From assembly GCA_020848545.1 (NCBI GenBank), contig JADLHZ010000009.1, positions 62,001-126,000 on the forward strand: a stretch of 64,000 nt of DNA, in the 5' to 3' direction. A program made the position numbers and the translations under genes. The notes beneath the pieces were generated by a model. The model did not search any database. It had not been told where the DNA came from and saw only the letters and a program-made list of their open reading frames with translations. This document shows, one piece after another, positions 10,165 to 53,165 of the stretch. Origin of the DNA: Deltaproteobacteria bacterium. GTDB taxonomy: Bacteria > Myxococcota > JADLHZ01. How positions within the stretch are numbered: position 1 is the stretch's first letter; each line of letters opens with the position of its first letter.

Positions 10165-11874
10165 TTATTTCCAGTTACCGATGATCTGGCTCGCGACTTC
10201 GCCGAACTTCTTCAACGCGTTCGACGCGGCGCTGTCGGCCTTCGTCATGCGCTCCATGATCATCTGCATGCGGAGCTGCTGCGCTTCGCCTTGCTCGGAG
10301 AGAGAGTCGCGGGTGTCGCGCATCTTCGAGATGTCATTCTCGGCGCTCTCGAAGTTCGTCTGATAACCGCCGCCGGTCTCGATCTCGTGCTCCTGTTGGC
10401 GCAGCGCCGCGTCGTCGGCCGGCGGAGCGGCTCCGTCCTCGGTCACTTCGCGCGAGCCCTCGGCTTCGAGGAACGACTGCTGCTTGTTCAGGCTCTTATT
10501 GTAATATTCGGGATCGCCGCCGCCGCCCTTCGGAAAGGGGACCCCCTTCTGTGCAATCATCTTCTCGGTCATCCCCTCGAACATGAGCTCTCCCTTGTTC
10601 TTGTGGGGGTTCTTCTTTGTGACGCCACCACCGCCGCCGGTGGGCGAACCGCTACCCGATGGCGAACCGCTACCCGATGGCGAACCGCTACCCGACGGCG
10701 AGCCGCTGCCCGACGGCGAACCGCTGCCCGACGGCGAAGCGCTACTTGACGCCGACGCGCTCGGCGACGGCGGGCCTTCGGGCGGCGGCGGGCCTTCGAG
10801 CATCTCTCCGTGCTGGCGCAGCGTCGCTTCGCCGGTCGTGTAGTCGATGTCGACCTTCGGCATCTGTAGCTGTTGGTATTTCAGGTAGTCGTCGAAGTCC
10901 TTGTATTTGGACTTCGTCGCCGGATCCATCGCGTCGTAGGTCGCGCGCGCCGACTTCTTCATGTCGGCGAGCTCGTCCTTCATGATCTGCTCGGCCTTAC
11001 GCAGCGCAGATCGGCGCAGGCGCGTCGCGTCCATCTCGCCGAGCATCTCGCGCATGTCTTTGCGCGCGTCTTGCGAGATCAGCATGAACATCATCATCAC
11101 GGCGTCTTCGATGCTCATGTTCGAGAAGTTGACGCCCATCTGCTGGCCTTTGCCCTGCAAGATGTTGCCGATGTCGCCGAAGACCTTGCCGCCCTCGCCG
11201 TTCAAGCGCGCGGACAGATCCTGAATGTCTTGGTTGGATGCCGTGGCCTGGGTGTCGAGGTTCGAGGTCGTGCGCATCGACGCGCCGTCGTTGCTGCCGA
11301 CTTCCTTCTTGAGCTCGCCGTTCAGCGCCTTACCCATGCGCACGGCTTCCTTCAACGTCTCTTTGAGCTGCGGATCCGCCTCGATCGCTTTGGCGATGTC
11401 GGCCGCGGTCTGCACCAGATTGCCCGTCTTCTGCAGCACGCCTTGCTGCAGCTTCTCGAACACCGCCGCGTAAGCCTTGCCAACTTCGGTCTCGAGCGCC
11501 TTGCGATCCTTCGGCGACGGAAAGCCGGTGAACGATTGCGTCGCGCCGATCTCTTCGGGGACCACGGCCAAGGCGAGCGAGTCGAGCGAGAACCCGGTCG
11601 GGAACGCGCCGGCGCTGGCGGTGCTCGCTTCTTGCGCGCCGATCAACGAGCCGCCGAGCGCGCTCAAGGTATTTCCACCGGAGATGGTCGCGCGGGCGGT
11701 CGCCACGTTGCCCGACAGCGCCTGCGCTTCGAGCGCGCTCATGGCCAGCGTCGCCGCCGCCTGTGCTGCTGCCGCGTCCGGAGCGCCGGCCTTGTTGCCG
11801 ACCGGCTTGCCGGCCGGGGCAGTCGGCTGCTGAGTGACGACGCGGGGTTGGTTTGTGATTTTGGGATCTGACAT
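10165..11874 (-). CDS. 569-aa secreted-type protein with the shared middle and C-terminal blocks
   Basis: No annotated family is recognised. Residues 1-90 are Ala/Thr/Gln-rich and low in structure. Residues about 253-295 hold the block IEDAVMMMFMLISQDARKDM and what follows, aligned without gaps to the 788-, 907- and 1134-aa proteins. A charged coiled-coil (MREMLGEMDATRLRRSALRK) and FDDYLKYQQLQMPK follow. A linker with six SGSGSP-type repeats precedes a Gly/Lys-rich part. The last 47 residues (DSLSEQGEAQQLRM ... VASQIIGNWK) are the shared C-terminal helix block. No membrane helix is evident. The ATG has GAGGAAG upstream. Inferred role: secreted filament, tip or effector-like protein using the TPR protein at 8373 as chaperone. 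Confidence 0.6.
   Translation of the reverse strand: MSDPKITNQPRVVTQQPTAPAGKPVGNKAGAPDAAAAQAAATLAMSALEAQALSGNVATARATISGGNTLSALGGSLIGAQEASTASAGAFPTGFSLDSLALAVVPEEIGATQSFTGFPSPKDRKALETEVGKAYAAVFEKLQQGVLQKTGNLVQTAADIAKAIEADPQLKETLKEAVRMGKALNGELKKEVGSNDGASMRTTSNLDTQATASNQDIQDLSARLNGEGGKVFGDIGNILQGKGQQMGVNFSNMSIEDAVMMMFMLISQDARKDMREMLGEMDATRLRRSALRKAEQIMKDELADMKKSARATYDAMDPATKSKYKDFDDYLKYQQLQMPKVDIDYTTGEATLRQHGEMLEGPPPPEGPPSPSASASSSASPSGSGSPSGSGSPSGSGSPSGSGSPSGSGSPTGGGGGVTKKNPHKNKGELMFEGMTEKMIAQKGVPFPKGGGGDPEYYNKSLNKQQSFLEAEGSREVTEDGAAPPADDAALRQQEHEIETGGGYQTNFESAENDISKMRDTRDSLSEQGEAQQLRMQMIMERMTKADSAASNALKKFGEVASQIIGNWK
10643..10750. repeat. Six 18-bp tandem repeats encoding a Ser/Gly/Pro linker
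   Basis: Six direct copies of ggcgaaccgctacccgat or close variants at 18-bp spacing, inside the 569-aa gene. Read on the minus strand they encode a flexible SGSGSP linker between the middle block and the C-terminal part. Copy number probably varies between strains (inference). Confidence 0.9.
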
Positions 11875-25670: not shown

Positions 25671-28394
25671 ATGCGTATTGATGCCTCGACCTTCCGCCCG
25701 CTCGTCACCGTCGCCGAAGGCGCCGTCTCGCCGGATCTCGCGGTCGCCACCGCCGGGGGAGCGGTCGACGCGGTCGCGCCGCCGCGTCCGGCCGCGGTGG
25801 CGATCGACGCGCGCATGCCGCCGGCCAGCGCCGATCCTGCCGGCGAGGCGCTCGTCGCCTTCGCCGAGCTCGTGAACGCGCTCCCGGCCGCGCTGCCGCC
25901 GCTCGTCGGCAGCGCCTTCGCGCCGGACGTAGAGGGCGCGCCGTTGCCCGACGGGATGTTCGATCGTCAAACGATCGCCGTGGCGCTGTGCTGCGATCAT
26001 CTGATCGCAGACGCGGTGTTGCCGGAAGATGCGCAGCAACGGCTCGAGCCGATCACGGCCTATGTGACCGCGGTGCTCGCGTTCTACGAGAGTCGCGATG
26101 AGCAGCGGGACGTTGCCGCGGCGACGAACGCTTCGGCGCTCCCCCAGGCGACGCAGCTCGCGCTTGCCGAGCTCACGCCGCGCCTCGCCGAGATCTTGCG
26201 CGGTTACACAGTGGCGGCCGCCGGCGCCGCCGTGGCGTCGACAGGTCTGCGACTGGACGGCCGGCCGCGCGAGCGGGCGCCGAATCAACCGCCGCCCCCG
26301 GCGCGTGCGGCGACTCCCGCTGACGGCCGGCCGCGCGAGCGGGCGCCGAATCAACCGCCGCCCCCGGCGCGTGCGGCGACTCCCGCTGACGGCCAGCCGC
26401 GCGAGCGGGCGCCGAATCAACCGCCGCCGCCGGCGCGTGCGGCGACTCCCGCTGACGGCCAGCCGCGCGAGCGGGCGCCGAACCAACCGCCGCCGCCGGC
26501 GCGTGCGGCGACTCCCGCTGACGCGCAACTAGCGGTCGAGCAAGAAGCGCCGGCATCAGGCGACGTCGTCGTGCCTTCGCCAAGCGTTGTCGAAGAAGAG
26601 CGTGCGCTCACGCGCGCGGTCGAGCGGGCCGCTGCACCGCTGCTCGCGACCTTCGACGTCTGGCCCGCTGGCGCGGACATCGACGCGCTCGTGTCGTTGG
26701 TCATGATGCAAGCGACGCGGCTCGAGGAGGCGATCACGCGAGATCAGCTCCGCGACATGGCGGCGACGACGGCGCGAAAGAAGGCGCTGCGCAGCGAGCA
26801 AACGCGGATGAAGGAAGCGCGCGCGCGGCTCGACTCGCAGATGCAGGCGGAGTTCGACGTCCTGCGCGAGAGCGGCGCGATCGCCGCCGGTTGGACGCTG
26901 GACGATTACAAGCGATGGCGCGAGTGCCAGTGGGCGGACCCGGATCCCGCGAACGCCGGCACCGTCGCCGAGCTGACGCAGCCGTCTCCGCCCCAGGCGA
27001 TCCCTTTGTGGTTGCAGCAGGGCCCAGAGAGCGCGCCGGCGGAAGCGGCAGCGGTCGGCGCGAGCGACAACGTCGATGGCGGCAGCGACCCCGGCGCCGC
27101 GAGCGCGTGCGAGCGCTACGGCTTGTCGGCCGACGTCGAGCGCGTGCTTCGCCGCATCTACGACGGCTTGCCGGCCGACGAGCGTGCTCTCTACACTTCC
27201 TTCGACGATTTCCTCGCCGGGCAGGGCTTTCTCGCTGCCGACGGCATCGGCGACGTCCGCGAGAACCTCCTGCGCGTGCAAGAGCTGATCGTCGCGGCGA
27301 CAGACCAGGCGCGGAGCGCTGCGACCACTGGCGCCGTCGACTCGGTCGCGCTCACCGAGGTGACGGGCGAGAACGGTCGCGTCCGACAGGCGATGCGCGA
27401 GCTCGTGCAGTGGCAGCTCCTCGCCGCCGCCGGCGTCGACGTCGGCTCGAACGTGACGCGGTGTCAGGACACGCTCGCTGAGCTCTGCGCGAACGCGCCT
27501 GCGACCGCGGCGTTCGCCGATGCCTATGCGGCCATGGTCGACGAGGTCGTCGCCGAAGCGCGCGCCGGCGTCGCGTACATGTTCGACCAGATGAACGGCT
27601 GGCAAGACGAAGGTCCGGGCGCGGTCGGCGTGAACATCGAAGACGACTTCACCGACGCCGAGGACGTCGTTCGCGGCGAGGACGAAAACCACGAGCGCTG
27701 GGTCGCGCACGAATCCGACGCCAACGAAGGAACCTCGCACGCTACGGGCGCGTGGTGGGACGGACGCGGCGGGCACGGCACCTTCCACTATCGCGAGACC
27801 GACGATGCCAATAGCAGCGGTGACCGCGAGTACGGGTTCCTCGGCGACCCGAAGCCCGGCTGGGTGAGCGCGCTCGAAGATCGACTGGGCTCGCGTCGTC
27901 AGCAGATCGACGTCTCCTCTTTTACCGCCGTGCTCGACTTTCTCGACGGCGCTGCGGCGGCGAACGCGTTCCAGCCGGCCGACATCCCCGCGGAAGATGC
28001 GATCGCAACGGGGCTCACGGCAGATGCATGCCATGAGCTGAAGCGTGTCATCGACAGTGCGCTCTCTGACCTGCGAAACCCGGCGAGTCGATACCGCTCC
28101 TGGCTCGAGGAGCGTTGCTTTGCCCAGGCAGAACCCGCTGAGCATGCGGCTGGTACGCGCATGCGTGGCGACACGGTCGACGCGCCGCTCGCGCATCGCG
28201 GCACGCTGGCGTCGTTCGACGCGGCGATCTCCGCGGTCAGCGACGAGCTCGATTCGCTGAGCGAGGCCGGTGAGATCGAGATGATCCGGCTCCAGAGCGC
28301 GCTCGATCGACGGCAGAAGATGATCGACGCGCTCTCGAACGTGCTGAAGAAGAACAGCCAGACACAAGAGAACATCGTCAGCAACCTGAAGTGA
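25671..28394 (+). CDS. 907-aa secreted-type protein with the shared middle and C-terminal blocks
   Basis: No annotated family recognised. Residues 1-195 are Ala-rich; 196-283 are four 22-residue repeats (DGRPRERAPNQPPPPARA ...). The shared middle block DIDALVSLVMMQATRLEEAI ... TTARKKALRS lies at about 335-376 and is followed by LDDYKRW. Then YGLSADVERVLRRIYDGLPA (about 481), a segment also seen in the 788-aa protein. Residues about 640-740 are acidic and His-rich. The last 47 residues (DSLSEAGEIEMIRL ... QENIVSNLK) are the shared C-terminal helix block. No membrane helix. A TPR gene starts 8 bases downstream. Inferred secreted structural or effector protein of a chaperone-dependent secretion route. 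Confidence 0.65.
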   Translation: MRIDASTFRPLVTVAEGAVSPDLAVATAGGAVDAVAPPRPAAVAIDARMPPASADPAGEALVAFAELVNALPAALPPLVGSAFAPDVEGAPLPDGMFDRQTIAVALCCDHLIADAVLPEDAQQRLEPITAYVTAVLAFYESRDEQRDVAAATNASALPQATQLALAELTPRLAEILRGYTVAAAGAAVASTGLRLDGRPRERAPNQPPPPARAATPADGRPRERAPNQPPPPARAATPADGQPRERAPNQPPPPARAATPADGQPRERAPNQPPPPARAATPADAQLAVEQEAPASGDVVVPSPSVVEEERALTRAVERAAAPLLATFDVWPAGADIDALVSLVMMQATRLEEAITRDQLRDMAATTARKKALRSEQTRMKEARARLDSQMQAEFDVLRESGAIAAGWTLDDYKRWRECQWADPDPANAGTVAELTQPSPPQAIPLWLQQGPESAPAEAAAVGASDNVDGGSDPGAASACERYGLSADVERVLRRIYDGLPADERALYTSFDDFLAGQGFLAADGIGDVRENLLRVQELIVAATDQARSAATTGAVDSVALTEVTGENGRVRQAMRELVQWQLLAAAGVDVGSNVTRCQDTLAELCANAPATAAFADAYAAMVDEVVAEARAGVAYMFDQMNGWQDEGPGAVGVNIEDDFTDAEDVVRGEDENHERWVAHESDANEGTSHATGAWWDGRGGHGTFHYRETDDANSSGDREYGFLGDPKPGWVSALEDRLGSRRQQIDVSSFTAVLDFLDGAAAANAFQPADIPAEDAIATGLTADACHELKRVIDSALSDLRNPASRYRSWLEERCFAQAEPAEHAAGTRMRGDTVDAPLAHRGTLASFDAAISAVSDELDSLSEAGEIEMIRLQSALDRRQKMIDALSNVLKKNSQTQENIVSNLK
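26256..26519. repeat. Four 66-bp tandem repeats encoding Pro/Arg-rich 22-mers
   Basis: Four near-identical 66-bp units start at 26256, 26322, 26388 and 26454. They encode a Pro/Arg/Ala repeat with the core RERAPNQPPPPARAATPADG, an extended linker between the N-terminal region and the middle block of the 907-aa protein. Near identity points to recent amplification. Confidence 0.95.
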
Positions 28395-28915: not shown

Positions 28916-29466
28916 GCGCACCTATCGACAAGCAACGCTCCGCCGGGTGGACGGAGCCACGAGATGCTTCCGTCGCGCGCGCCGGCGCGTCGGCTGACAT
29001 CGTGACACGAGCCCTCGCGCTCAACCCGGAGCTCGCCAAGACGACGTCAACCGAGGCCGCCCTCGCCGCCCTGTCGCAGCAGCGCGCGCTCCCGGCGCAG
29101 GCGAAGGCTCCGGCGCGTCCGCGGCTCCTCGACGCGCGTCCACCGGCCACGCCTGAGACGCGCGACTTCGTCGCACGCGTCGGCGCAAGCAAGCGTGACC
29201 ACGCCGCCGCGAAGCTCGGCTTCGCAAAGGCCGCCGCCGCGCTCGACGCCGAGGCACGTGCGCTGGCGATCGAGCGACAGGCGCAGGCGGACGCGGCGCT
29301 TGCGGCGGTGGTCGATCTGCTTCGCCGCGTCGATCCGACGCTCGCCTCGCCGAAGACGAAGGTGGTGCTCGAGGCCGACGCGCGCTTTCTCGCGAGCATC
29401 GGCTTTCGACCGGAGCTCGCCGGACGGAAGAAGGAGAGGGATGACCATGGCGAACGTCATCAGTGA
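28912..29466 (+). CDS. Coiled-coil protein A of the cassette
   Basis: A 184-aa protein whose ATG overlaps the TPR stop (ATGA). The N-terminus has VTRALALNPELAK; the middle has an Ala-rich coiled-coil (AKLGFAKAAAALDAEARALA), and the end reads FLASIGFRPEL then basic residues. The NP-L motif, central coil and FLAxIGF end are shared with the proteins at 29441 and, more weakly, 46645. No known family. Coiled-coil size would suit a small cytosolic export accessory, but this is inference. Confidence 0.5.
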   Translation: MSAPIDKQRSAGWTEPRDASVARAGASADIVTRALALNPELAKTTSTEAALAALSQQRALPAQAKAPARPRLLDARPPATPETRDFVARVGASKRDHAAAKLGFAKAAAALDAEARALAIERQAQADAALAAVVDLLRRVDPTLASPKTKVVLEADARFLASIGFRPELAGRKKERDDHGERHQ

Positions 29467-29905
29467 AGAAGCGGTGCGCACCTTGCTCAAGCTCAACCCA
29501 GGGCTTCGTGAGAGCCTGGCGAAGGGCGGCGCCACGACGATCGAGGTCAAAGATGCGGCCGCCCGCACCGTCGAGGGGCAGGGACCACCGCCGGCGAGCA
29601 CGCCGCCGCGCACCGCGCTCAGCCTGGCTGAGGAGCTCGCGCGGATCGCGAAGACGTTCGCTGCCGCTCGCGCCGAGACCACGTTGCGCGAGAAGGCGCT
29701 GGCGGCACGGCGCGAAGCGCTGGCCAGGGAGGCACGCACTGAGGCCGCCGTGTGCTGTGAGGAGCTGGTTCGAGCGCTCATCGCCGTCGACCGAAACGTC
29801 GCCCAGCGTAGAAACCAGGCGATCCTCGAGCAGGAGAAGGCGTTCCTCGCCGAGATCGGCTTTTCGCTCGAGCGCGTGCTCGCTGCCGAACGCCGCGGTT
29901 TCTAG
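29441..29905 (+). CDS. Coiled-coil protein B of the cassette
   Basis: A 154-aa paralogue of protein A. The N-terminus is VISEEAVRTLLKLNPGLRES, the middle is a coil (LREKALAARREALAREARTE) and the end is EQEKAFLAEIGFSLERVLAA. AAGGAGAGGG lies just before the ATG at 29441; ATG at 29447 is an alternative. It overlaps the end of protein A by 26 bases. Last gene of the four-gene cassette 25671-29905. Confidence 0.5.
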   Translation: MTMANVISEEAVRTLLKLNPGLRESLAKGGATTIEVKDAAARTVEGQGPPPASTPPRTALSLAEELARIAKTFAAARAETTLREKALAARREALAREARTEAAVCCEELVRALIAVDRNVAQRRNQAILEQEKAFLAEIGFSLERVLAAERRGF

Positions 29906-43737: not shown

Positions 43738-44139
43738 TCAGGTGACGCTGGCCAGCTGCTTGCGTGTCTTCGCGATGAGCAAGCGTGCGCGCTTGCCGGC
43801 GGGATCTTCGGCCTCGGGATCGAGGGCGCAGGCCCGCTGCAGCGACAAAGCCGCCGCCTCGTAATCGCAGGCGTCGATCTGCGCATCGGCGAGATGCGTG
43901 TGCACGGCGGGCGCGGTGCCATCGCGGCGGCACGCTTCCGAGAACGCGAGGACGGCGCGCGCGGTGAGGCCACGGCGCGCACACGCAATACCGAGCGCCA
44001 CGAACCACCTGGATTCGTCTGAGACGCCCGCGCACTGCTCGGCGAGCGCGATCGCCGCTTCGTGCTCGTCGGCGTCGACGAGCGCGCGCCAGGTGGCGAG
44101 GAGCGGCGACAGATCGACCTTCGAATGGGTAGTGTTCAC
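43738..44139 (-). CDS. TPR chaperone-like protein following the 788-aa gene
   Basis: A 133-aa helical protein with two to three TPR units (WFVALGIACARRGLTARAVL; VHTHLADAQIDACDYEAAAL) and the end signature D-x5-P-A-G-K-R-A-R, then LLIAKTRKQL. Starts 7 bases after the 788-aa stop. Last gene of the minus-strand operon and convergent with the ligase-like gene. Inferred dedicated chaperone of the 788-aa protein. Confidence 0.65.
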   Translation of the reverse strand: MNTTHSKVDLSPLLATWRALVDADEHEAAIALAEQCAGVSDESRWFVALGIACARRGLTARAVLAFSEACRRDGTAPAVHTHLADAQIDACDYEAAALSLQRACALDPEAEDPAGKRARLLIAKTRKQLASVT

Positions 44140-44146
44140 GGGCGCC

Positions 44147-46513
44147 TCACTTCAGGTTGCCGATGATCGTGTCTTTGACCTTGGCGAACGACGCCATCAG
44201 ATTCGACAGCGTGGTCTGCGCCTTCTGCATCCGGTCCATCATCATCTGCATACGCAGCTGCGTTTCGGAGCTGATGTCGCCGAGCGTGTCCATCTCGGAT
44301 TGCAGCTTTTCGATCTGCGGCTTCTGGTCGTCGGCGCGCTGGCGCGCGGCGGCGGCCTCGGCCTTGGCCTTGATCACCTCTGCCGCGGCGGCCTCCACCG
44401 CTTGCTTCGCCGTGGCGAGGCTGGTGTCGGTCGATGGCAGCGCGGCGAGCGCATTCTTGGCGTCAGCAAGCGCGGACTCGGCGCTTTGCACTCCCGCTTG
44501 TTTTGCGGCGGCGGCGGCACCCGCGGTGCTCGCGGCGCTCGTCTGCGCCGTGGTCGGCGTCACCCGCGGGGCGATCTGCGCCAAGAACGTGGCCATAGCC
44601 TGGCGATTGGCGTTGACGGTCGCAAAGTCGCTGTCGTTGTTCGGCCACACGAGGCCGGGGCACGAGCGTGCCCACTCCATCATCGTCTTGCCCTGCTTCT
44701 CCGAGTCCGGCAGGGCATCGTAGATCTGCTGCAGTGCATTCATCTGCGTCTCGCTGAAGCCGTACGCGGTCCGGAACTCGTTGCGATCACCCGACTCCAT
44801 CTCGAACGACGTCGCCTTGGCGACGCACTGGCTGGCCCTGCCGCACTCGACGGCGAGCGCGTCGAACTTGGCCTGCTCCTCAGTCGATCCCGCGGCCTGG
44901 CGTTCGTTGCGAATGAGCTGGCCGATCTGGCCCAGGCACGTCGCATACTTGCTCGCCGAGAGCGGTGCGGCCGTCGCCGTGTTGAACCAGCCTTGCACCT
45001 CGCTAGCCTTCGCCGGGTCCTTGGCGATCACCGACGCCACCAGGTGGCACAGCTCGGGCGGCGCGCCGGTCGCCTTCGTCATCTCTCGCGTGCGCTTTTG
45101 GATCTCGGCTTCTTCTATGTAGCGCGTCAGTTGCCGAATCTTGCTGGCGTTTGGCGACGGCTTCGTCAGCTCGATCGCGAGGCACTCGTTGGCGAATTGC
45201 TTCAGCTTGGCCAGATTGTCGATCACCTTGTCGTAGTTCGGCGACAAATCGGAGTTGAGCGGCGGGATGGCGCCGCCGAGCTTCATCAACAGATCAGCAA
45301 TGTCGCTCGCGCGCTCGGCCGGCGGTTTTCCGACGTTGTAGGACGCCACGAGCCCGCCGAACTGCTCACCGCCGAGCTCGGTGCCGGCCATGCTGACGTT
45401 GCTCGACCAGCTGCAGGGTTGCGTCATCGGATCGTTCATCGCACCTGGGAAATTGCCCTTGACGGCGTCGATCGTCGTCTTGGCTCTGCTTGCCGCGGCG
45501 AGCGCCGCATCGGCGGCTTCCTTGGCGGTCTTGGCCGCTTCGAGCGCCGTTTTCGCTCGATCCAGGTCGCCTTGCGCGTCGCCCACCTTGGCCGTCCGTT
45601 GCTGAACCAGCGCATCGTAGGCCGCCTTGGCCTTGGCGAGCGCCTCCGACGCCGCGCCGACGTTCTTCTCGGCCGCGGCGACATAGTCCTCGCGAAACTT
45701 CGCCTCTTGCTGCAGCGCGGCTTGCTGGTCTTTTGCCCCCTGAATCTGCTCGCGCTTCTTCTTCTTCTGCGCGTTGTTCGCCGTGATCTCATCGAGCACA
45801 CTCTTGACGTCTTGGCGCGCGTCTTTGGCGCACAGCATCATCACGATGCTGACGAGCTCCTCGATGTTCGCTTCACCGGCGCGATCAGCCAGCGCCGCCA
45901 GCGCGCCCCCGACCTCTTTCTCTTGCACCACCGTGAGCGACGTCTTCCCGCTCGCCTGCCGCAGCGCCGCGATCGCGGTCGCGACCTTCTGTAGATCGGG
46001 CTTCGCTTTGGCGTCCGCCACGAGCCGTTGCGCGGCGCCGCTCGTCTCGGCGCTCTCTGAGATCTTGAGCCACACGCGGGCCCCCGCGGCGAGCACTTCG
46101 TGCTTGGTCTCCTTCAACGCCGTCTTGGTATCGACGCTCGCGTGCGTCATCGCGACGTCGAGGACTGCGAGCGTCTTTTCGTCTGCGACGAAGCCGGCGC
46201 CGAACATCGCCGGCGGCGTCTCGAGCGTGAACCGCCCAGCGGGGGTTCCCGTCAGGTCCACGCCGAGGTGCGCATCGGCCAGCTGATCGAAGAGCGCGCG
46301 GGCCTTGGGCGACGCGCCAGCGGCGGCAGGCTGCTCTCCCGCTTCGGTACGAACGGCGGCGGCCGCGCGATCGGCGGGGCCGGCCCCCACCGTGTCGAAG
46401 GCGGCGATCTGCACCGTGGGCTTCTTGACGGCGTTCGTCGGAACTGCGCCGGTCGTTTGCTTCGTGACGCGCGGCTCCACCTGGCGCGGGCCGTCTCCTC
46501 GGATCGTCGTCAT
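44147..46513 (-). CDS. 788-aa secreted-type protein with the shared middle and C-terminal blocks
   Basis: A strong ribosome site (AAGGAGG) lies 4 bases before the ATG. Residues 1-90 are Ala/Thr/Pro-rich. The shared block NIEELVSIVMMLCAKDARQD ... ANNAQKKKKRE lies at about 213-255. A long coiled-coil follows (about 255-360, LQQEAKFREDYVAAAEKNVG; ALEAAKTAKEAADAALAAAS). YGFSETQMNALQQIYDALPD at about 586 matches the 907-aa protein. A second coil (about 690-740) leads to the 47-residue C-terminal block (DTLGDISSETQLRM ... KDTIIGNLK). Several Cys are present. No membrane helix. Function inferred only from family and neighbours. Confidence 0.65.
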   Translation of the reverse strand: MTTIRGDGPRQVEPRVTKQTTGAVPTNAVKKPTVQIAAFDTVGAGPADRAAAAVRTEAGEQPAAAGASPKARALFDQLADAHLGVDLTGTPAGRFTLETPPAMFGAGFVADEKTLAVLDVAMTHASVDTKTALKETKHEVLAAGARVWLKISESAETSGAAQRLVADAKAKPDLQKVATAIAALRQASGKTSLTVVQEKEVGGALAALADRAGEANIEELVSIVMMLCAKDARQDVKSVLDEITANNAQKKKKREQIQGAKDQQAALQQEAKFREDYVAAAEKNVGAASEALAKAKAAYDALVQQRTAKVGDAQGDLDRAKTALEAAKTAKEAADAALAAASRAKTTIDAVKGNFPGAMNDPMTQPCSWSSNVSMAGTELGGEQFGGLVASYNVGKPPAERASDIADLLMKLGGAIPPLNSDLSPNYDKVIDNLAKLKQFANECLAIELTKPSPNASKIRQLTRYIEEAEIQKRTREMTKATGAPPELCHLVASVIAKDPAKASEVQGWFNTATAAPLSASKYATCLGQIGQLIRNERQAAGSTEEQAKFDALAVECGRASQCVAKATSFEMESGDRNEFRTAYGFSETQMNALQQIYDALPDSEKQGKTMMEWARSCPGLVWPNNDSDFATVNANRQAMATFLAQIAPRVTPTTAQTSAASTAGAAAAAKQAGVQSAESALADAKNALAALPSTDTSLATAKQAVEAAAAEVIKAKAEAAAARQRADDQKPQIEKLQSEMDTLGDISSETQLRMQMMMDRMQKAQTTLSNLMASFAKVKDTIIGNLK

Positions 46514-46644
46514 ACGCCCTCCTTGTTGAACCTACCCTGTACGGACGACCTCGGCCAACCGGGAGCGCGCGCTGGCGCGTCTGCGCGGGCGCTTGGCGCG
46601 CGTCCTCGTCTCTTCACTTTGCGGACATACTACTCAGCCAGACT

Positions 46645-47148
46645 CTAGGTCTTCTTCTTGCGGTAGGTCGCGATATAGTCGGCCGTCTTGAATCCGAACG
46701 CGGCGATGACGGGCGCATGATCTTTGAGCGCGCCTTGGCTCACCGGCGACAAGATGTCGGGGTCGTTCTTGATCAGCCATTGCGTCAAGCGATCGCGGGC
46801 GTCGTTGGCGTTCTTCTTGCGCTCGACCTCGATCAACGCGAGCTGGCTCTGGAGCTCGTGCTCCTTGCGTTTGAACTCGGCTTCGAGCTGCGCCAGGACC
46901 GCGTAGATTCCGGCCGAGGGATCGACCTTCGCCGCCGACTTGGCGTCCGCCGTGCCCTTGCCCGCCGCCAGATCCTGCGACTGGCGCACCACCTTCTTCG
47001 TATCGAGGCCCTGCGCGCGCAGCGCCGGATTCATCGCCAGCAACGCTTTGGCGACCGCCGGGCTGACGCCGGCTTCCTTGGCGTCCTCCTCTGCCGCGTC
47101 GTCCCAGGCCTGCCGCGTGCTCTTCGGCTTGTCGCCCTCTTTGCTCAT
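46645..47148 (-). CDS. Coiled-coil protein C of the operon
   Basis: A 167-aa protein with an acidic N-terminus, then VSPAVAKALLAMNPALRAQG, a coiled-coil (EFKRKEHELQSQLALIEVER) and an end reading APVIAAFGFKTADYIATYRK. It shares the NP-L N-terminal motif, central coil and FGF-type end with proteins A and B at 28912 and 29441. It starts 4 bases after the upstream TPR stop. A 131-base spacer, possibly with its own promoter, separates it from the 788-aa gene. Confidence 0.5.
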   Translation of the reverse strand: MSKEGDKPKSTRQAWDDAAEEDAKEAGVSPAVAKALLAMNPALRAQGLDTKKVVRQSQDLAAGKGTADAKSAAKVDPSAGIYAVLAQLEAEFKRKEHELQSQLALIEVERKKNANDARDRLTQWLIKNDPDILSPVSQGALKDHAPVIAAFGFKTADYIATYRKKKT

Positions 47149-47152
47149 CGCT

Positions 47153-47542
47153 TCATCTTTCCCCGAGCTGCTTTTCGAGCTTGAACGCGAGCACGCGCGC
47201 GCGCCGGCCGGCCGGCGTCGCGGCGGCCTTGTCGATCGCGAACGCGCGCTCGAGCGCGGTCACCGCCATCGCCGGATCGGCGGCTTCCATCGCCGCCTCG
47301 GCCAAGCACACGCAGACCTCTACGTCCTCCGGCATCAGCTCGAATAAACGCAAAAACCACCGCGCGGCTTCCGGCGCACGCTCCAGCCGGGCGAGCGCGA
47401 GCCCGACGGCGGCGACGAGCTCGGTGTCGCGGCTGCCGTCCGGCACCATCGGCAAGATGAGCTGCACGACGAGATCGGGAGAGACGCGTAACAGATTCAA
47501 CGCCGCGGTGCCCATCGCGCTCGGCTTGCGCTGGCTGCTCAT
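47153..47542 (-). CDS. TPR chaperone-like protein
   Basis: A 129-aa protein starting MSSQRKPSAMGTAALNLLRV; ATG overlaps the stop of the 210-aa gene (ATGA 47539-47542). TPR-like helices (LVAAVGLALARLERAPEAAR; VCLAEAAMEAADPAMAVTAL) end in D-x5-P-A-G-R-R-A-R then VLAFKLEKQL. Unlike the other TPR genes it does not directly follow one of the giant proteins, so its partner may be the 391-aa or the 210-aa protein (inference). Confidence 0.6.
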   Translation of the reverse strand: MSSQRKPSAMGTAALNLLRVSPDLVVQLILPMVPDGSRDTELVAAVGLALARLERAPEAARWFLRLFELMPEDVEVCVCLAEAAMEAADPAMAVTALERAFAIDKAAATPAGRRARVLAFKLEKQLGER

Positions 47543-48171
47543 GACACGACCCCGGTAGTCGTTGCCGCGACAATCGGCCGCGCCGCAAACGCTGCCGCAA
47601 GCAACGCCAACATATCTGCGCGCTGCTGCAACGTCTCTTTCAGCTCTGCCGCGGGCGGCTCGCGCTTGGCGAGAAGCGCCGCGAGCGGCTTCTCCAGCAG
47701 ATCCGCGCAACGCGCGAGGACGAGCAGAGCCCACGTGTCCGGAGGGAACACATCGCTAAACCGGCCCGCGGCGATCGCCAACGCGATGGCCGCGCGTCCT
47801 TGCGAATCGGGCGCACCGCCCCGGCAGGCTCGTCGCGTGGCGCCGGCCACCGCGTCGATCGCCGCCGCATCTTCTTTTGCGTGGCGCGCCAAGAACGCCT
47901 CGGCCGCCTTGCGCTCGCCACCAAGCAGGAGCGCGCGAACGGCGTCCTTGCGACGCATCATGCGCTCGCGCTCCGCCGGATCGCTGGGAAAGGGACCGAG
48001 GAGCGCGCGCACGACGAGCTCGGGCGGCAAGAGCGAGGTGAGCGCGACGAACTGGTCGGCGTCGGCGAGCTGTAGCGCGTAGGCGGCGGCCATCTCGCCG
48101 GCAGGCGGTTCGGTGACCGAGTCGGTGAGCTTGCGCAGGCGCTTTTTGAGCTCGTCGTTCTTCTTCTTCAT
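47539..48171 (-). CDS. 210-aa helical protein related to the 391-aa neighbour
   Basis: Mostly Ala/Leu-rich helices, basic at the start (MKKKNDELKKRLRKLTDSVT). Residues about 20-55 (PPAGEMAAAYALQLADADQF, VALTSLLPPELVVRALLG) align with SPTGDIGKRHALGLAEPKGF, AALSLLLPPDRL of the 391-aa protein. No known family. Both ends overlap neighbours by ATGA, showing tight coupling. Confidence 0.5.
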   Translation of the reverse strand: MKKKNDELKKRLRKLTDSVTEPPAGEMAAAYALQLADADQFVALTSLLPPELVVRALLGPFPSDPAERERMMRRKDAVRALLLGGERKAAEAFLARHAKEDAAAIDAVAGATRRACRGGAPDSQGRAAIALAIAAGRFSDVFPPDTWALLVLARCADLLEKPLAALLAKREPPAAELKETLQQRADMLALLAAAFAARPIVAATTTGVVS

Positions 48172-49343
48172 GCGCTATCGCCCGCGCGGACGTGGCTGGC
48201 GACGATCTTCGACACTTGCTCGTGCCAGCCGGCACGCCGCTCGAAGAAGGATTGTAGACGTTGCTTCGTCGCTTCGTTCTTGGCGTCGAGCGCCGCCGCT
48301 TCGCGCTGACCGTCGTCCGTGCGCGCCGCGATGCGTTCGCGCGCGCCGCTGACGTCTTTCCAGGCGACGTCGCCCTCCGCGGCGGGTGCGCGCTGGGATC
48401 CGGCGCTGCCATACAGCGTCTCCTCCGCGCTCACGCGCAAAACCGGCGGCTCGCCGGCGCCGTCGAGCGTGCCGCGCACGACACGCACGGGTTGCTCTGA
48501 CGCAAAACGTGCGAAGTCGACAACTTTGGCGTCGATGCGCCGCGGATCTTTCGGATCTTTGATCGCGACACGCTCGTCGTAGCGCGCGTGCAGCTCTTTT
48601 TCGAGCCGCGCGCTCTCGCCGTCGAGGGCACCGGCGAACGCGGTCAACGCTTGGCGCGCCGGCGCCGCGGCGCTACGGAGCTCGGCCTGCCCGCGAGCCT
48701 CGTCGAGCAGCGCTGGCAGCTCACCGTCGCCGCCGGCTTTGATGAGCACCGTCGCCGCAATGCTGTCGGCGCCGACGTTCGCATTGGCAAGCACCGCCGC
48801 ATGACCGCTGAGCGCTTGCCGAAGCTGCTCGGGCGACGCACGCGTGGCGAGTAATTGCCCAAGCGCACCCGCCATCGCGCTCAGCGCGTCCGCCACGGCC
48901 GGCGGGAGTTGATTCAGAAACAACTCGGCGCTCGCGCGCTCTTCACGCAAGAGCTTGCCGCCCGCATCACCGCGCGTCGCCAGTTCGGCGAGCCGGTCCG
49001 GCGGAAGCAGCAAGCTCAAGGCGGCAAAGCCCTTCGGCTCGGCGAGCCCGAGGGCGTGCCTCTTGCCGATGTCTCCGGTCGGAGACGTCGTCACGCTGGC
49101 GGCGAGCGCACCGACGTGCTCTTTCAGCGTCTCGAGCTGCGCCTGCGTGAGCGGCGGCGCGTCGAGCGCGCCGGCGGCGGCGCCAGCAGTTCGCGCCGAG
49201 ACGGCCGGACCCTGGGCCGTCGCCCGATCGAGACCTCGTGGCTGGACGTCGGCGACGGTCTCAGTGGCCTTCGTCTCCGTTGCCGGCGCCGTTTCTTCGG
49301 TCGGCGTCGTCGGGATTGTTCCTGGCGGTTCTCGAACTCGCAT
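48168..49343 (-). CDS. 391-aa operon protein
   Basis: The start MRVREPPGTIPTTPTEETAP is chosen because it lies just after the upstream TPR stop (8-base gap). Residues 1-75 are Thr/Ala/Pro-rich, like the giant proteins' N-termini. The centre is helical, with the segment shared with the 210-aa protein (KEHVGALAASVTTSPTGDIG). From about 240 a charged region (LEKELHARYDERVAIKDPKD) leads to a helical end (QRLQSFFERRAGWHEQVSKI). No family recognised. Possibly another exported substrate given its N-terminus (inference). Confidence 0.5.
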   Translation of the reverse strand: MRVREPPGTIPTTPTEETAPATETKATETVADVQPRGLDRATAQGPAVSARTAGAAAGALDAPPLTQAQLETLKEHVGALAASVTTSPTGDIGKRHALGLAEPKGFAALSLLLPPDRLAELATRGDAGGKLLREERASAELFLNQLPPAVADALSAMAGALGQLLATRASPEQLRQALSGHAAVLANANVGADSIAATVLIKAGGDGELPALLDEARGQAELRSAAAPARQALTAFAGALDGESARLEKELHARYDERVAIKDPKDPRRIDAKVVDFARFASEQPVRVVRGTLDGAGEPPVLRVSAEETLYGSAGSQRAPAAEGDVAWKDVSGARERIAARTDDGQREAAALDAKNEATKQRLQSFFERRAGWHEQVSKIVASHVRAGDSA

Positions 49344-49351
49344 GGGCGTCC

Positions 49352-49756
49352 TCAGCTCTGCAGCCGGCGTTTGATCTCTTTTTGCATCCGCACGATCACG
49401 ACCCGCGCGCGCACCCCGCTCGGATGTCGCATTTGCGGATCGCGTTGGCAACAAAGCTTCAGCTCGGCGAGCGCGCCTTTGTAGTCGAGCAGGTCAATGA
49501 GCAGCTCGGCGTAAGCGACGCGAATGTCGAGGTTGTCGGGCTCGAGCGCCAAAGCCTGACGCAGCGCAAACACCGCGTACTTGTGCTCGTTCTCGGCGAG
49601 ATCGAGGAGCGCGAGCGCGTGCCAGGCATCCGCTCGCCGGGGTTCTGTCGAGACCACGCGCGCGACCATTTCGCGAGCGCCGCGCGGAGAGCGTTCGCGG
49701 CTCTGCCATGCGAGGCGCAGCACGCGATCGTTTTGGGCTTTCTGTGCCGTGCTCAT
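49352..49756 (-). CDS. TPR chaperone-like protein following the 1134-aa gene
   Basis: A 134-aa protein with TPR units (WHALALLDLAENEHKYAVFA; RVAYAELLIDLLDYKGALAE) and the end signature D-x5-P-S-G-V-R-A-R, then VVIVRMQKEIKRRLQS. ATG at 49756 lies 4 bases after the giant gene's stop; a GTG at 49759 is an alternative. Likely dedicated partner of the 1134-aa protein. Confidence 0.65.
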   Translation of the reverse strand: MSTAQKAQNDRVLRLAWQSRERSPRGAREMVARVVSTEPRRADAWHALALLDLAENEHKYAVFALRQALALEPDNLDIRVAYAELLIDLLDYKGALAELKLCCQRDPQMRHPSGVRARVVIVRMQKEIKRRLQS

Positions 49757-49760
49757 CACT

Positions 49761-52700
49761 CTATCCCTTCAGATTGGCGACGATGTTGCCGCGCGTCTCG
49801 CTCGCCTTCTTCATCATGTTCGAGAGCATGTCGAAGATCTTCGCGCGGCGATCTTGGTAGAGCTGTAGCTTCATCGCCAGCTCGTTCGTGATGTCGCCGA
49901 GCGTGTCCTTCTTGCCTTCCCACTCGTCGATCACCGCCTTCAGCTCGCCCATCGAGATCTGGCGCAGATCACTGTAGACGGGCGGCTTGTCGCGCTCCTC
50001 CGCCGCCACCAGCTGCGCGATCGCCGCGCTGACCGCTGGGGACGGGGGTGTCCCGGTGCCCTGCCGACCGCCGTTGTTGTTGCCGCCATTGTTGTTTGTG
50101 TTGTTGTTCGTACTGCCGCCGGCCGGCGTTTTCTTCTTCTCCGCGTCGATGAGCGCCTTCACTTGCGCGCCTGTTTTCTCATCGGGTTGACGCGCCGTGT
50201 TCACGTGCAGATCGTTCGTCAGGAATCCCGTGAGCCCGTCGCGCCACTTGTTCTGATCTTCCGTGCTCCACTGCGGCGCGGTCTGGTGGTGGCCCCACGG
50301 CGAGATGTGGTTGGTATGGGTGTACGGCTGCGTCGGGCTCGGGTGCGTATTGAGAAAGGCCTCGCCGGTGCGAAAGATCCCGTTCGGTTGGCTCGGGTTG
50401 AGGCCGGCGGCACCGAGATCGCGCGCGATCTCGGCGAGCTGCAGCTGCACGTAGGCCTCGGCTTTGGCGCGCGCCGCGGGTCCCTGCGTCTGCTCGATCA
50501 CCCGTAGCTTGGCGGCGAGCTGGCTCTTGGCGTCGGTCTTCGTGTGATTGAAGCTTTTCGTGTTGTGGACCGTGTCCTCGGCGATCTGCGTGTTGACGTC
50601 GAGGATCAAGTCGTCGAGCCGCGAGGCGTCCTCGGGGTTCAGGCGGCCGCGCGCCTCGACGATCGCCTTATGTAGAGTCTTTTCCGTCTCGCTGTAGGCG
50701 GCCGTACCGGACGGCGGACTGGTCATCAACTCGCGCAGGATCTCGGTCTGGGTCTTTCCGACGGAAGGGTAGTAGCTCGCCTCGAGCGCTTCGAGCTCGT
50801 CGGCCGAGAGGGAGCTGGTGATGCGCCCATCGTTGTTCGTGCCCGCGCCCGCCGGCGGCCCAGGGGGCGGTGAGTCTGCATATTGCTTCGCCTTGGCCGC
50901 GGCGGCGTTCTTGGCCTTGTTGGCGGCGTACTTGGCCTCGCAGTCGACCTTGGAAAAAAAGGTGGTCGTGTCGGCAAGGAGCAAGGGATCGTAGACGTTC
51001 GCCTCGCTCGGGCCCCAGATCCAATGCGTCTTGCCCTTGCAGTCGACGCAGCAGTCGTTGTTGCTGCCGCAGAGCCCCTTGCAGATCACACTCGACGAGC
51101 GGAACGGATTGCCGATCCCCGCGTCCGTCTTCGAACGCTCGAGCATCTTGTGGCCGTTCACGAGCAACGCATTGACGTAGTTCTTGGCGAAGTCTTTGTC
51201 GTCGCCAAAAGCGTTGATCGCGGTCGTGAGCGCGTCCCTCGAGGCCTTCATCTGCGTTTCTTGCTCGCCGACCCAATCGTTTGCCCAGGCCTTGGCGGCG
51301 CCGAGCGCCATCATGTCGTTGACGTACTTGGCGAGCGCGTCGTTGAGCTTCGCGGTCAAGACGGGATCTTTGAGCAGCGACAGCCCGATCCTCACGATGT
51401 CGGCTTCGACGTTCGGCCCGGTCGAGAGCGTGAGCCCCGCGAACGGATCCTTGTCGACGTTGCCGCCGTCCTTGGCCGCATTGAAGAAGGCGTTCACGGC
51501 CGCCGTCGCGTTGCTCATCCCCGGCGACAAACCCGGCCCTGCCGGCGCCGAGGTCGTCAGCCACGATTCGAACGCTTCGTTACCCGCGCCCGGGTTCGCG
51601 GCGTTGAAGTACTCGCGCAGCGCCGCCCGCTGCTGCTCGGAGATGTTGATGACGGCGTTGCCACCGCTGTCGCCGCTCACGTTGCTCAGATCGACGTCGG
51701 AGTTCTTGGTCTTCCAATCCGTGATGAACGCGTTGACGATCCCGTCTTGGCTCGCCGTCGCCGGCAAGGTCAGCCCGAGCCCGCCGGAAGCCTTCGGCGA
51801 CAGCAGAAACGCCTCGAACGAGACGTGCTTGCGCAGCGACGCGTCCTTGCTCCACATCGCCTTCAGGTCGGCGAGCGCCTCGGGCGCGACCTTGAGGCGC
51901 CTCGCTTCGAGCACGAGCTGCGCTGGAATCTTGTTGCCGTTGCCGTCGAAGATCTCCGGGCCCTTCTGAGGGTAGTAGACGACGTTCGCGCTGACATCGA
52001 GCGCGAGGCCGCCGACCGGCAAGCCGTTCTCGTCGACGGCGTTTGGATCGCCGCGTTTTACCGCCAGTTGCTGCGACGCGCAGTAATCCTCGAACGACGT
52101 GATGCTCGGTTCGATGTGCAGGTTCTTGTCGTCGCTCGCGCAGCGCACGTCATACTCGTGACGCAGGCGCTTTTGCATCTCGGCCTGCTGCTTCTTCAGC
52201 GCCACGACGTGCTCGCGCACGGCTTTCTTCTGCGCGTTGTTCGCCTTCACCTCGTTGATCATGCTGCGCAGATCGTCGGTGGCGTCGCGCCCGCACTCCA
52301 TCATGACGATCTGCACGAGCGAATCGATGTCGCCGTCGCCGACCGGCAGGCTGCCAAAGGTGCTGCCGAGGCTCTTTTCGAAGGCGAGCACATCTGGTCC
52401 TGGCAATGAGACAGGCCCAAGGCCGAAGCGAACGCCTTCGTCGACCTCGTCGGTCATGCGCTTGGACGCGTCTTTGCCGGCGGTCCTTGCGGCCCCAGGC
52501 TCCGCCTTCGCTTCGGTCCCCGTGAGCTTGGCGTGGCGCAGCGCCTTGGCGACGCTCGCCGGCAAGAACTCGGCGAAGCGCGTCTGCACCTGCTCCGTGA
52601 GCTTGGCGACCGCCGCCTGCGTCGGCGGCGGCAGCGTCGAGATCAGGCGATCGATCGTCGCCTGCTCGACCTTCGCCGTGAGCGCGTCGGCGACGGCGTC

Positions 52701-53165
52701 GTCGACGATCAAGCCGCGATCACCCAGGCGGTTCGCCGTCTCGAACATCCACTCGGCGGGCAACGCGCTGGTGTCGACCGGTTTCTCGATCTCCGGACGA
52801 TTGAGCTCGAACTTCCCCGCCACGCGCACGTCGCTCGGCTTCTCGCCCATCTGCTCGATCAGCTGGGCGACCTCGGCCGAAACCGCCTCGAGGTCGGCGT
52901 CCGACGTCGGCTCGGACGCCTTCTGCGCCATCGTGGCAGCGAGGGGACCGCCGCTCTTGAAATCGTCGTTCGAGGCAAAGGCAAGGCGTGTCGCTTCGAC
53001 GCCCGCTTGCCCGGCCACGTTCGCCGCCCCGGGATCGAGCCCGGCCGCCGCCTCGTTCGTCCCTGCCTCACCGATTTTTCCCGCGTTCGCGGGGGTTTCC
53101 GCCGGTGACGCTGGGCGTTCAAGCGCGGCCGGGACGGGTCGGTCGACTTTGTCGGGGATTCGCAT
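49761..53165 (-). CDS. 1134-aa secreted-type protein with the shared blocks and a Cys cluster
   Basis: The largest family member; start MRIPDKVDRPVPAALERPAS at 53165 (a TTG at 53180 is also in frame). The first 100 residues are low complexity. The shared block DIDSLVQIVMMECGRDATDD ... ANNAQKKAVRE is at about 280-322, followed by FEDYCASQQL. Segments near 427 (LKAMWSKDASLRKHVSFEAF) and 505 recall the IYD-LP segment of the 788- and 907-aa proteins. At about 690 lies a Cys cluster (CKGLCGSNNDCCVDCKGKTH). An Asn-rich linker (NNNTNNNGGNNNGG) precedes the end block (DTLGDITNELAMKL ... GNIVANLKG). No membrane helix. Confidence 0.65.
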   Translation of the reverse strand: MRIPDKVDRPVPAALERPASPAETPANAGKIGEAGTNEAAAGLDPGAANVAGQAGVEATRLAFASNDDFKSGGPLAATMAQKASEPTSDADLEAVSAEVAQLIEQMGEKPSDVRVAGKFELNRPEIEKPVDTSALPAEWMFETANRLGDRGLIVDDAVADALTAKVEQATIDRLISTLPPPTQAAVAKLTEQVQTRFAEFLPASVAKALRHAKLTGTEAKAEPGAARTAGKDASKRMTDEVDEGVRFGLGPVSLPGPDVLAFEKSLGSTFGSLPVGDGDIDSLVQIVMMECGRDATDDLRSMINEVKANNAQKKAVREHVVALKKQQAEMQKRLRHEYDVRCASDDKNLHIEPSITSFEDYCASQQLAVKRGDPNAVDENGLPVGGLALDVSANVVYYPQKGPEIFDGNGNKIPAQLVLEARRLKVAPEALADLKAMWSKDASLRKHVSFEAFLLSPKASGGLGLTLPATASQDGIVNAFITDWKTKNSDVDLSNVSGDSGGNAVINISEQQRAALREYFNAANPGAGNEAFESWLTTSAPAGPGLSPGMSNATAAVNAFFNAAKDGGNVDKDPFAGLTLSTGPNVEADIVRIGLSLLKDPVLTAKLNDALAKYVNDMMALGAAKAWANDWVGEQETQMKASRDALTTAINAFGDDKDFAKNYVNALLVNGHKMLERSKTDAGIGNPFRSSSVICKGLCGSNNDCCVDCKGKTHWIWGPSEANVYDPLLLADTTTFFSKVDCEAKYAANKAKNAAAAKAKQYADSPPPGPPAGAGTNNDGRITSSLSADELEALEASYYPSVGKTQTEILRELMTSPPSGTAAYSETEKTLHKAIVEARGRLNPEDASRLDDLILDVNTQIAEDTVHNTKSFNHTKTDAKSQLAAKLRVIEQTQGPAARAKAEAYVQLQLAEIARDLGAAGLNPSQPNGIFRTGEAFLNTHPSPTQPYTHTNHISPWGHHQTAPQWSTEDQNKWRDGLTGFLTNDLHVNTARQPDEKTGAQVKALIDAEKKKTPAGGSTNNNTNNNGGNNNGGRQGTGTPPSPAVSAAIAQLVAAEERDKPPVYSDLRQISMGELKAVIDEWEGKKDTLGDITNELAMKLQLYQDRRAKIFDMLSNMMKKASETRGNIVANLKG

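What the first reader, a model, noticed from the sequence alone, without database searches (positions are those of the whole stretch)
43738..53165. Compact eight-gene operon of a possible chaperone-dependent secretion system
From 53165 to 43738 eight genes run with overlaps or gaps of at most 8 bases, except one 131-base spacer: 1134-aa protein, TPR, 391 aa, 210 aa, TPR, coiled-coil, 788-aa protein, TPR. Two giant/TPR pairs bracket accessory genes, like translocator or tip operons, yet no ring, ATPase or export-gate gene is present. The apparatus may be elsewhere, for example the needleless T3SS known in myxobacteria, whose exported extracellular parts are poorly known (inference).
Basis: partly seen in the sequence, partly recalled or inferred. 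Interest (0 to 1): 0.8.

Follow-up and report, generated by a model that had tools for sequence, protein, structure and literature searches.

The report
Needle-tailed giant type III secretion substrates
The operon encodes two members of a family of about 34 large, variable proteins in this myxobacterium-like genome that share a tail resembling the needle subunit of type III secretion systems and travel with chaperone-like genes; the same tail occurs on small needle-like genes inside the myxobacterial secretion cluster that has been described as "needleless", so the family names testable candidates for what that predation machine secretes.

Summary
The eight-gene operon is real. Its two giant proteins (1134 and 788 aa) belong to a family of about 34 proteins spread over about 20 contigs of this 8-Mb genome. 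They share an N-terminal helical block and a ~60-residue C-terminal helix (alignment A1) but have unrelated middles: 36 of 496 pairs of middles are similar, against 462 of 496 for the C-termini. 30 of 34 lie next to a TPR gene, and none has a Sec-like N-terminus.

A profile of that C-terminus, built only from these paralogs, hits 71-74-aa proteins inside the type III cluster of Myxococcaceae, beside SctV. Those proteins resemble SctF needles: PF09392 matches 10 of 11, below its cut-off, and a solved needle-chaperone complex (7y6c) matches at E = 2.4e-6. Published work says this "needleless" T3SS* has no needle homologue and no known effector. Other members carry a NolX/HrpF-like translocon domain or a calpain protease. 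The genome itself has a scattered, Myxo-type export gate, SctRSTUV.

Best reading: polymorphic, TPR-chaperoned substrates of a non-flagellar T3SS. Export, chaperone binding and function are inferred; a second SctN ATPase was not found.

The parts
49761..53165 (-). Giant protein 1 (1134 aa, P0001): unstructured S/T/P/Q-rich N-terminus, helical N-block about 260-345, shared domain about 355-570, variable middle, C-terminal needle-like helix about 1072-1133
49352..49759 (-). TPR protein (135 aa from GTG, 134 aa from ATG 49756), LcrH/SycD-like but below the family cut-off; inferred chaperone of giant 1
48168..49343 (-). 391-aa protein related to the N-terminal part of the giants, without the C-terminal needle-like domain
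47539..48171 (-). 210-aa protein, partial relative of the 391-aa protein
47153..47542 (-). TPR protein (129 aa), weak matches to SctY and LcrH chaperones, below cut-off
46645..47148 (-). 167-aa helical protein of the 'g6' family (24 copies in the genome, near 26 of 34 giants); possible co-chaperone, function unknown
44147..46513 (-). Giant protein 2 (788 aa, P0007): predicted 91-residue helix 217-307, helical head about 398-650, 91-residue C-terminal helix 697-787 ending in the needle-like motif
43738..44139 (-). TPR protein (133 aa), inferred chaperone of giant 2
25671..28394 (+). Further giant paralog (907 aa), followed by a TPR gene (28403-28915) and two g6-like genes (29002-29466, 29441-29905)
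10165..11874 (-). Further paralog (569 aa) with N-block and C-terminal domain; a TPR gene lies at 8583-9005 (+)

Best explanation
The operon encodes two polymorphic substrates of a non-flagellar type III secretion system of the myxobacterial T3SS* type, with their TPR chaperones and helper proteins. Each giant has an unstructured N-terminal export signal, a helical N-block, a variable passenger and a C-terminal amphipathic helix homologous to the C-terminus of needle (SctF)-like subunits. In the cytosol the neighbouring TPR protein holds the C-terminal helix in its groove, as YscG/PscG hold SctF, keeps it from self-assembling and presents it to the export gate SctV. After export the needle-like helix, probably paired with the N-block as a coiled-coil stalk, docks on or joins the needle-like filament, so that the passenger sits at or is delivered by the tip to another cell. 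Shown by sequence: the homologies, the C-terminal position, linkage to TPR genes, co-occurrence with the export gate, effector- or translocon-type passengers in relatives. Inferred: secretion, chaperone binding, coiled-coil pairing, filament docking, and a role in predation or contact killing.
For: (1) The C-terminal profile built only from this genome finds 71-74-aa proteins between the TPR and SctV genes of Myxococcaceae T3SS* clusters, one to four copies, and 181-190-aa ones with a TPR near SctI/SctJ at the other end. The reciprocal profile from those clusters finds the giants' C-termini, best E = 1e-9; profile-profile probability 97.6%, E = 3.9e-12. (2) Over 1887 proteins, 79 and 86 hits at E < 1e-3 against none in reversed or shuffled decoys; 78 of 79 and 86 of 86 end within 10 aa of the C-terminus (training members included). 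(3) The cluster proteins resemble SctF: PF09392 in 10 of 11, best 2.8e-4; the needle-chaperone entry 7y6c_F 2.4e-6, MxiH 0.015, PrgI 0.04; TIGR02105 in 3 members, best 0.0052. (4) TPR gene within two genes of 30 of 34 own members against 88 of 521 other genes, and 35 of 56 against 146 of 1276 elsewhere. (5) Passengers: NolX in 6 of 7 Myxococcaceae ~500-aa members, best 4.2e-7, and the HrpF/HrpK translocator model once, 2.1e-5; Peptidase_C2 in three giants of two other families, 1e-12 to 1e-14, with Cys-His-Asn motifs checked in two. (6) 0 of 34 have a Sec-like N-terminus. (7) Own non-flagellar gate SctRSTUV and SctQ; SctV 79-84% identical in giant-bearing genomes of five other families. (8) C-domain and SctV/FlhA co-occur: 135 both, 6 C-domain only, 27 FHIPEP only, 27 neither.
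Against: No dedicated SctN or SctJ (fetched contigs only) was found for the second system in this genome, and no stand-alone 70-aa needle gene. All SctF-type model matches are below curated cut-offs, and the TPR proteins match generic TPR families as well as LcrH. AlphaFold models are low-confidence (mean pLDDT 56 and 61) and fold search found no T3SS protein. The giants' own middles match no enzyme family. Co-occurrence with SctV/FlhA is confounded by phylogeny and by flagellar copies. No secretion data.
Confidence: 0.66

Rival explanations
1. Structural reading: the giants are variable filament or tip/translocon proteins of the T3SS*, N- and C-terminal helices forming the filament core and the middles acting as adhesins or prey-recognition heads, not toxins.
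For: N-block plus C-terminal helix around a variable middle, the arrangement known for flagellin and tip proteins (established knowledge); two ~91-residue helices predicted in P0007; NolX/HrpF-like middle in Myxococcaceae relatives; short+long giant pairs with one TPR at several loci recall translocator pairs.
Against: Calpain protease passengers in relatives; ~32 paralogs with mostly unrelated middles fit effectors at least as well; few giants have even a weak hydrophobic segment (8 of 32).
Confidence: 0.3
2. The giants are exported through the flagellar type III apparatus.
For: The genome has a complete-looking flagellar cluster with the only FliI/SctN-type ATPase.
Against: The C-terminal domain sits in non-flagellar T3SS clusters; G010 has giant-type proteins and a single SctV, which is of the non-flagellar type; no member lies in the part of the flagellar cluster fetched here.
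Confidence: 0.08
3. A cytosolic or envelope coiled-coil scaffold family with TPR partners, unrelated to secretion; the C-terminal similarity to needles is convergence of short amphipathic helices.
For: Helical, low-complexity proteins; fold search gives generic coiled coils; SctF matches below cut-offs; P0007 weakly matches SMC/MukB-like models.
Against: No decoy hits, near-universal C-terminal position, location of small members inside T3SS clusters, reciprocal profile hits, translocon-type domain in relatives.
Confidence: 0.1
4. Contact-dependent antibacterial toxins exported by another route (Tad/Kil, T6SS or similar), the 167-aa g6 proteins being immunity proteins.
For: Polymorphic middles and linked small genes; own SctV lies about 6 kb from Tad pilus genes.
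Against: g6 proteins are homologous across loci although the middles differ, unlike polymorphic immunity genes; Tad adjacency was not seen in the SctV regions of the two relatives with full gene calls, G017 and G037; no T6SS marker domain in the members scanned.
Confidence: 0.07

Closest known systems
SctF needle subunits (PF09392, TIGR02105: MxiH, PrgI, YscF, EsaG) with TPR chaperone YscG/PscG and co-chaperone YscE
   Same: C-terminal helix pattern (SN..K......I..N.[RK]) at the extreme C-terminus; TPR gene next door, as in YscE-YscG-YscF (PMC9163089, PMC9426511)
   Different: In the operon it is a tail on 788-1134-aa proteins rather than an ~80-aa protein; matches are below curated cut-offs; no YscE homologue identified
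Myxobacterial non-flagellar T3SS / 'needleless' T3SS* (PMC3459982, PMC12075869, PMC10433427)
   Same: Own SctV, SctR, SctS, SctT, SctU, SctQ and one TPR are closest to this type; small C-domain proteins with TPRs lie inside its cluster
   Different: Published descriptions report no needle, translocon or known effectors; here the gate genes are scattered on three contigs and the second SctN was not found
NolX/HrpF/HrpK T3SS translocon proteins (PF05819, PF16937)
   Same: The ~500-aa Myxococcaceae C-domain protein matches NolX in 6 of 7 genomes
   Different: The window's giants show no such match; the needle-like tail and TPR partner are not features I know for NolX/HrpF (not tested)
LcrH/SycD class II chaperones with translocator pairs
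   Same: TPR chaperone-like gene beside one or two large putative substrates
   Different: Large substrates mostly lack clear hydrophobic segments; TPR scores below the TIGR02552 cut-off
Polymorphic toxin/effector families with a conserved trafficking domain
   Same: Conserved N- and C-terminal modules, variable middle, many paralogs
   Different: The conserved trafficking-type module is a needle-like C-terminus; no polymorphic immunity gene recognised

Membership tests
SctF needle family (PF09392) | Significant match to the family model above its curated cut-off | tested here: not met
   Giants' C-termini: 6 of 31, best 9.6e-4; cluster proteins 10 of 11, best 2.8e-4; 17.2 and 20.8 bits where printed, cut-off 29.4
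SctF needle family (PF09392) | Small (~80 aa) protein in a T3SS cluster with TPR chaperone | tested here: met
   Met for the 71-74-aa Myxococcaceae proteins; not for the window's 788- and 1134-aa proteins
SctF needle family (PF09392) | Polymerises into a needle | not testable with these tools
   needs an experiment
LcrH/SycD class II chaperones (TIGR02552) | Score above the curated cut-off (104.8 bits) | tested here: not met
   26 of 29 TPRs match, best 1.3e-13; the scores printed for the operon's TPRs (16.7-22.1 bits) are far below the cut-off; generic TPR models match too
LcrH/SycD class II chaperones (TIGR02552) | Encoded beside its T3SS substrate | tested here: met
   30 of 34 C-domain genes have a TPR within two genes; that these are substrates is inferred
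Myxo-type non-flagellar T3SS (T3SS*) | Export gate SctRSTUV distinct from the flagellar set | tested here: met
Myxo-type non-flagellar T3SS (T3SS*) | Dedicated SctN ATPase and SctJ ring | tested here: inconclusive
   Only one SctN/FliI in the draft genome; SctJ query matched only flagellar FliF among fetched contigs
T3SS translocators (SseC/SipB, NolX/HrpF) | Match to translocator models | tested here: not met
   None for the window's proteins; NolX found only in Myxococcaceae relatives
Anti-phage defence systems (PADLOC) | Match to defence protein models | tested here: not met
   Only a weak coiled-coil match of P0007 to JetC, 4.5e-4
Any T3SS substrate | T3SS-dependent secretion | not testable with these tools
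   needs a secretome comparison of wild type and sctV mutant

The most novel reading that the evidence does not exclude
Myxobacterial 'needleless' T3SS* machines do have a needle-like subunit and a translocon-like protein, and in some Myxococcota lineages the needle-tail module was fused to a large arsenal of variable passengers that ride on or through the needle: needle-tailed effectors, a delivery principle not known for type III systems as far as the papers searched show.
Probability: 0.45. Interest if true: 0.92.

Novelty: new variant of a known kind. Interest (0 to 1): 0.8.

Why it matters
The T3SS* of Myxococcus is required to lyse prey, but reviews state that it lacks needle and translocon homologues and that its effectors are unknown (PMC10433427, PMC12075869, PMC3459982). 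This analysis names three kinds of candidate in Myxococcaceae (a 71-74-aa needle-like protein beside SctV, a 181-190-aa one near SctI/SctJ, an unlinked ~500-aa NolX-like protein with a TPR partner) and about 34 candidate substrates in the present genome, all recognised by one C-terminal module. That turns 'what does the needleless T3SS secrete?' into direct deletion and secretome tests in a laboratory strain, and gives a search profile for the substrates.

Tried and rejected
Pfam, NCBIfam and PADLOC on the operon proteins gave TPRs and weak coiled-coil matches only. phmmer of P0001 against the PDB: none; of P0007: three weak unrelated chains. AlphaFold of P0001 and P0007 gave low-confidence models; fold search gave only generic coiled coils, so no structural claim beyond long helices is made. 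The search for related loci with P0007 found nothing in the genome collection, and A1 was too diverse to scan with. The idea that SctV-Tad adjacency is a conserved link was dropped: not seen in the SctV regions of G017 and G037. g6 as a YscE homologue: no relative in the PDB profile search. g6 as immunity protein judged unlikely because it is conserved across loci with unrelated middles. A stand-alone needle gene in this genome was sought and not found. The Thiery 2022 paper on T3SS* (cited from memory) was not held.
Full report
The observation. The eight genes exist as described; the junctions are 1, 8, -4, -4, 4, 131 and 7 nt. A codon-usage gene finder run on the window recovers the same eight genes. 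The 1134-aa and 788-aa proteins are paralogs: they share a block at 263-349 / 198-285 (E = 3e-16) and their last 55 residues (E = 2e-5). The 391-aa protein is related to the N-terminal part of that architecture, and the 210-aa protein is a partial relative of it.

One of about 20 loci. Searching the window's own genome (8.0 Mb, 163 contigs) with P0001 gave 64 matches on about 20 contigs. Fetching these loci and predicting genes gave giants of 389 to 1412 aa, nearly all with both the N-block and the C-terminal domain, plus small TPR proteins and a third family, g6, of 145-190 aa with invariant NP, DP and GF positions. A count over the fetched loci, including members found later, gives 34 C-domain proteins. 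C-termini are alike in 462 of 496 pairs and middles in 36 of 496. A TPR gene lies within two genes of 30 of 34 C-domain genes against 88 of 521 other genes in the same loci (Fisher p = 6e-18; these loci were chosen for the giants, so the background is conservative but not independent); none of the 34 has a Sec-like hydrophobic N-terminus against 128 of 430 others. The N-termini are rich in T, Q, P and N and poor in L and aromatic residues, as expected of type III signals (the expectation is general knowledge).

Link to type III secretion. A1, an alignment of 31 C-termini, was used as a profile on 195 Myxococcota genomes: 141 match at E <= 1e-3. In family f8 the matches include short ORFs, sometimes four in tandem. 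Fetching them showed 71-74-aa genes inside a cluster SctI-SctJ-...-SctN-SctO-SctL-SctQ-FliO-SctR-SctS-SctT-SctU-...-TPR-needle-like-TPR-SctV, and a second C-domain protein of 181-190 aa with its own TPR upstream of SctI and SctJ. The gene labels rest on my reading of one reference cluster and BLAST to it. Four 9.0-9.5-Mb genomes of the same genus carry two copies each of a 74-aa gene in this cluster; whether one of them is M. xanthus was not established.

Is the small protein a needle? Of the 11 cluster proteins aligned as A4, ten match PF09392 (T3SS needle), best E = 2.8e-4, below the curated cut-off. A profile of A4 against the PDB hits 7y6c_F, a chain of the Edwardsiella needle-chaperone structure, at 2.4e-6, then MxiH and PrgI at 0.015-0.06, aligned to their exact C-termini (the entry is described in PMC9426511). 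TIGR02105 (SctF) matches three members weakly. A4 against A1 by hhalign: probability 97.6%, E = 3.9e-12. A4 searched back in the window's genome finds the giants' C-termini as best hits (1e-9) plus a 594-aa, a 274-aa and a 267-aa protein. Across 1887 predicted proteins the two profiles give 79 and 86 hits at E < 1e-3 and none in reversed or shuffled copies; all but one end within 10 residues of the C-terminus. I therefore call the proteins needle-like, not proven SctF.

Other passengers. The ~500-aa C-domain protein beside a 173-aa TPR, conserved across Myxococcaceae away from the T3SS cluster, matches NolX in 6 of 7 genomes (best 4.2e-7) and once the HrpF/HrpK translocator model (2.1e-5). Giants of families f15 and f17 carry a calpain protease domain (1e-12 to 1e-14), with the Cys, His and Asn motifs in place in the two f15 proteins. 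One conserved tail thus occurs on a needle-like subunit, a translocon-like protein and proteases, which is what a shared export or docking module predicts.

The apparatus in this genome. FHIPEP, FliP and FlhB models each hit twice: once in a flagellar cluster (C153), once elsewhere: SctV on C123, SctQ-R-S-T on C84, SctU with a TPR on C140. The second set is clearly closer to the Myxococcaceae T3SS* genes (SctV 61% against 35%, SctR 57-59% against 36%, SctU 43-44% against 34%). A second SctN was not found; relatives with two SctV/FlhA genes generally have two ATPases, and G010, with a single non-flagellar SctV, has one, so a gap in this draft, a loss, or sharing of the flagellar ATPase are all possible. 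Other giant-bearing genomes in five further families have an SctV 79-84% identical to this one.

Co-occurrence. C-domain and FHIPEP across 195 genomes: 135 both, 6 C-domain only, 27 FHIPEP only, 27 neither (Fisher p = 8e-13). Five of the six C-domain-only genomes have SctR/FliP, leaving G085 (81% complete); G009 has only a marginal FHIPEP match.

Mechanism. In known systems a TPR protein (YscG/PscG, EsaH) holds the needle's C-terminal helix, a small co-chaperone completes the complex, and a TPR chaperone-substrate pair docks on SctV (PMC9163089, PMC9426511). The giants' arrangement fits: needle-like C-terminal helix, TPR neighbour, a second small helical neighbour (g6). AlphaFold predicts long helices at the N-block and C-terminus (280-343 and 1072-1133 in P0001; 217-307 and 697-787 in P0007), with low overall confidence; that they pair is my inference. 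Whether passengers are effectors, adhesive heads or both is open.

Relation to the literature. Abby and Rocha (PMC3459982) state that Myxo systems lack SctF, secretin and translocon and that SctF should have been found if present; PMC10433427 states that the cluster has several LcrH homologues but no needle or translocon homologue and that effectors are unknown; PMC12075869 uses 'needleless'. None of the papers I read or saw listed in six searches reports a needle-like gene in this cluster; most subscription papers are not held.

Noticed in passing
L098:9811-10029, L099:9686-9901, L095:8624-10169, L096, L097, L176-L178, L179-L184: 71-74-aa needle-like genes inside the 'needleless' T3SS* cluster of Myxococcaceae, up to four near-identical tandem copies; in the 9.0-9.5-Mb Myxococcus genomes two identical copies on the strand opposite to the cluster.
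   Followed up: yes
L120:7879-8442, L121:12301-12867, L132:10253-10798, L129:9687-10079: Second C-domain protein (130-190 aa, Gly-rich, moderately hydrophobic middle) in T3SS clusters near SctJ or the export gate, in most cases with a TPR gene next door.
   Followed up: partly
L100:8788-10848, L101, L102, L114, L128, L130, L135: Conserved unlinked pair in Myxococcaceae: ~500-aa NolX-like protein with needle-like C-terminus and a ~173-aa TPR, next to a RuvX-like gene.
   Followed up: partly
G000:C123:61846-75916: Own non-flagellar SctV stands alone, about 6 kb from Tad pilus genes (Flp pilin, TadV, secretin, FHA-TadA); adjacency not seen in G017 or G037.
   Followed up: partly
G000 whole genome: Only one FliI/SctN-type ATPase for two type III export gates.
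   Followed up: partly
L040-L058 and window (24 genes): g6 family: ~150-190-aa helical proteins with invariant NP, DP and GF positions, no relative found; accompany most giants, often on the opposite strand.
   Followed up: partly
L052:9276-15653: 389-aa C-domain protein followed by several small genes that match the TPR profile, a different layout from the other loci.
   Followed up: no
L104:2005-9711 (G017), L124:4381-6549 (G024): C-domain giants with calpain (Peptidase_C2) domains in two other Myxococcota families.
   Followed up: partly
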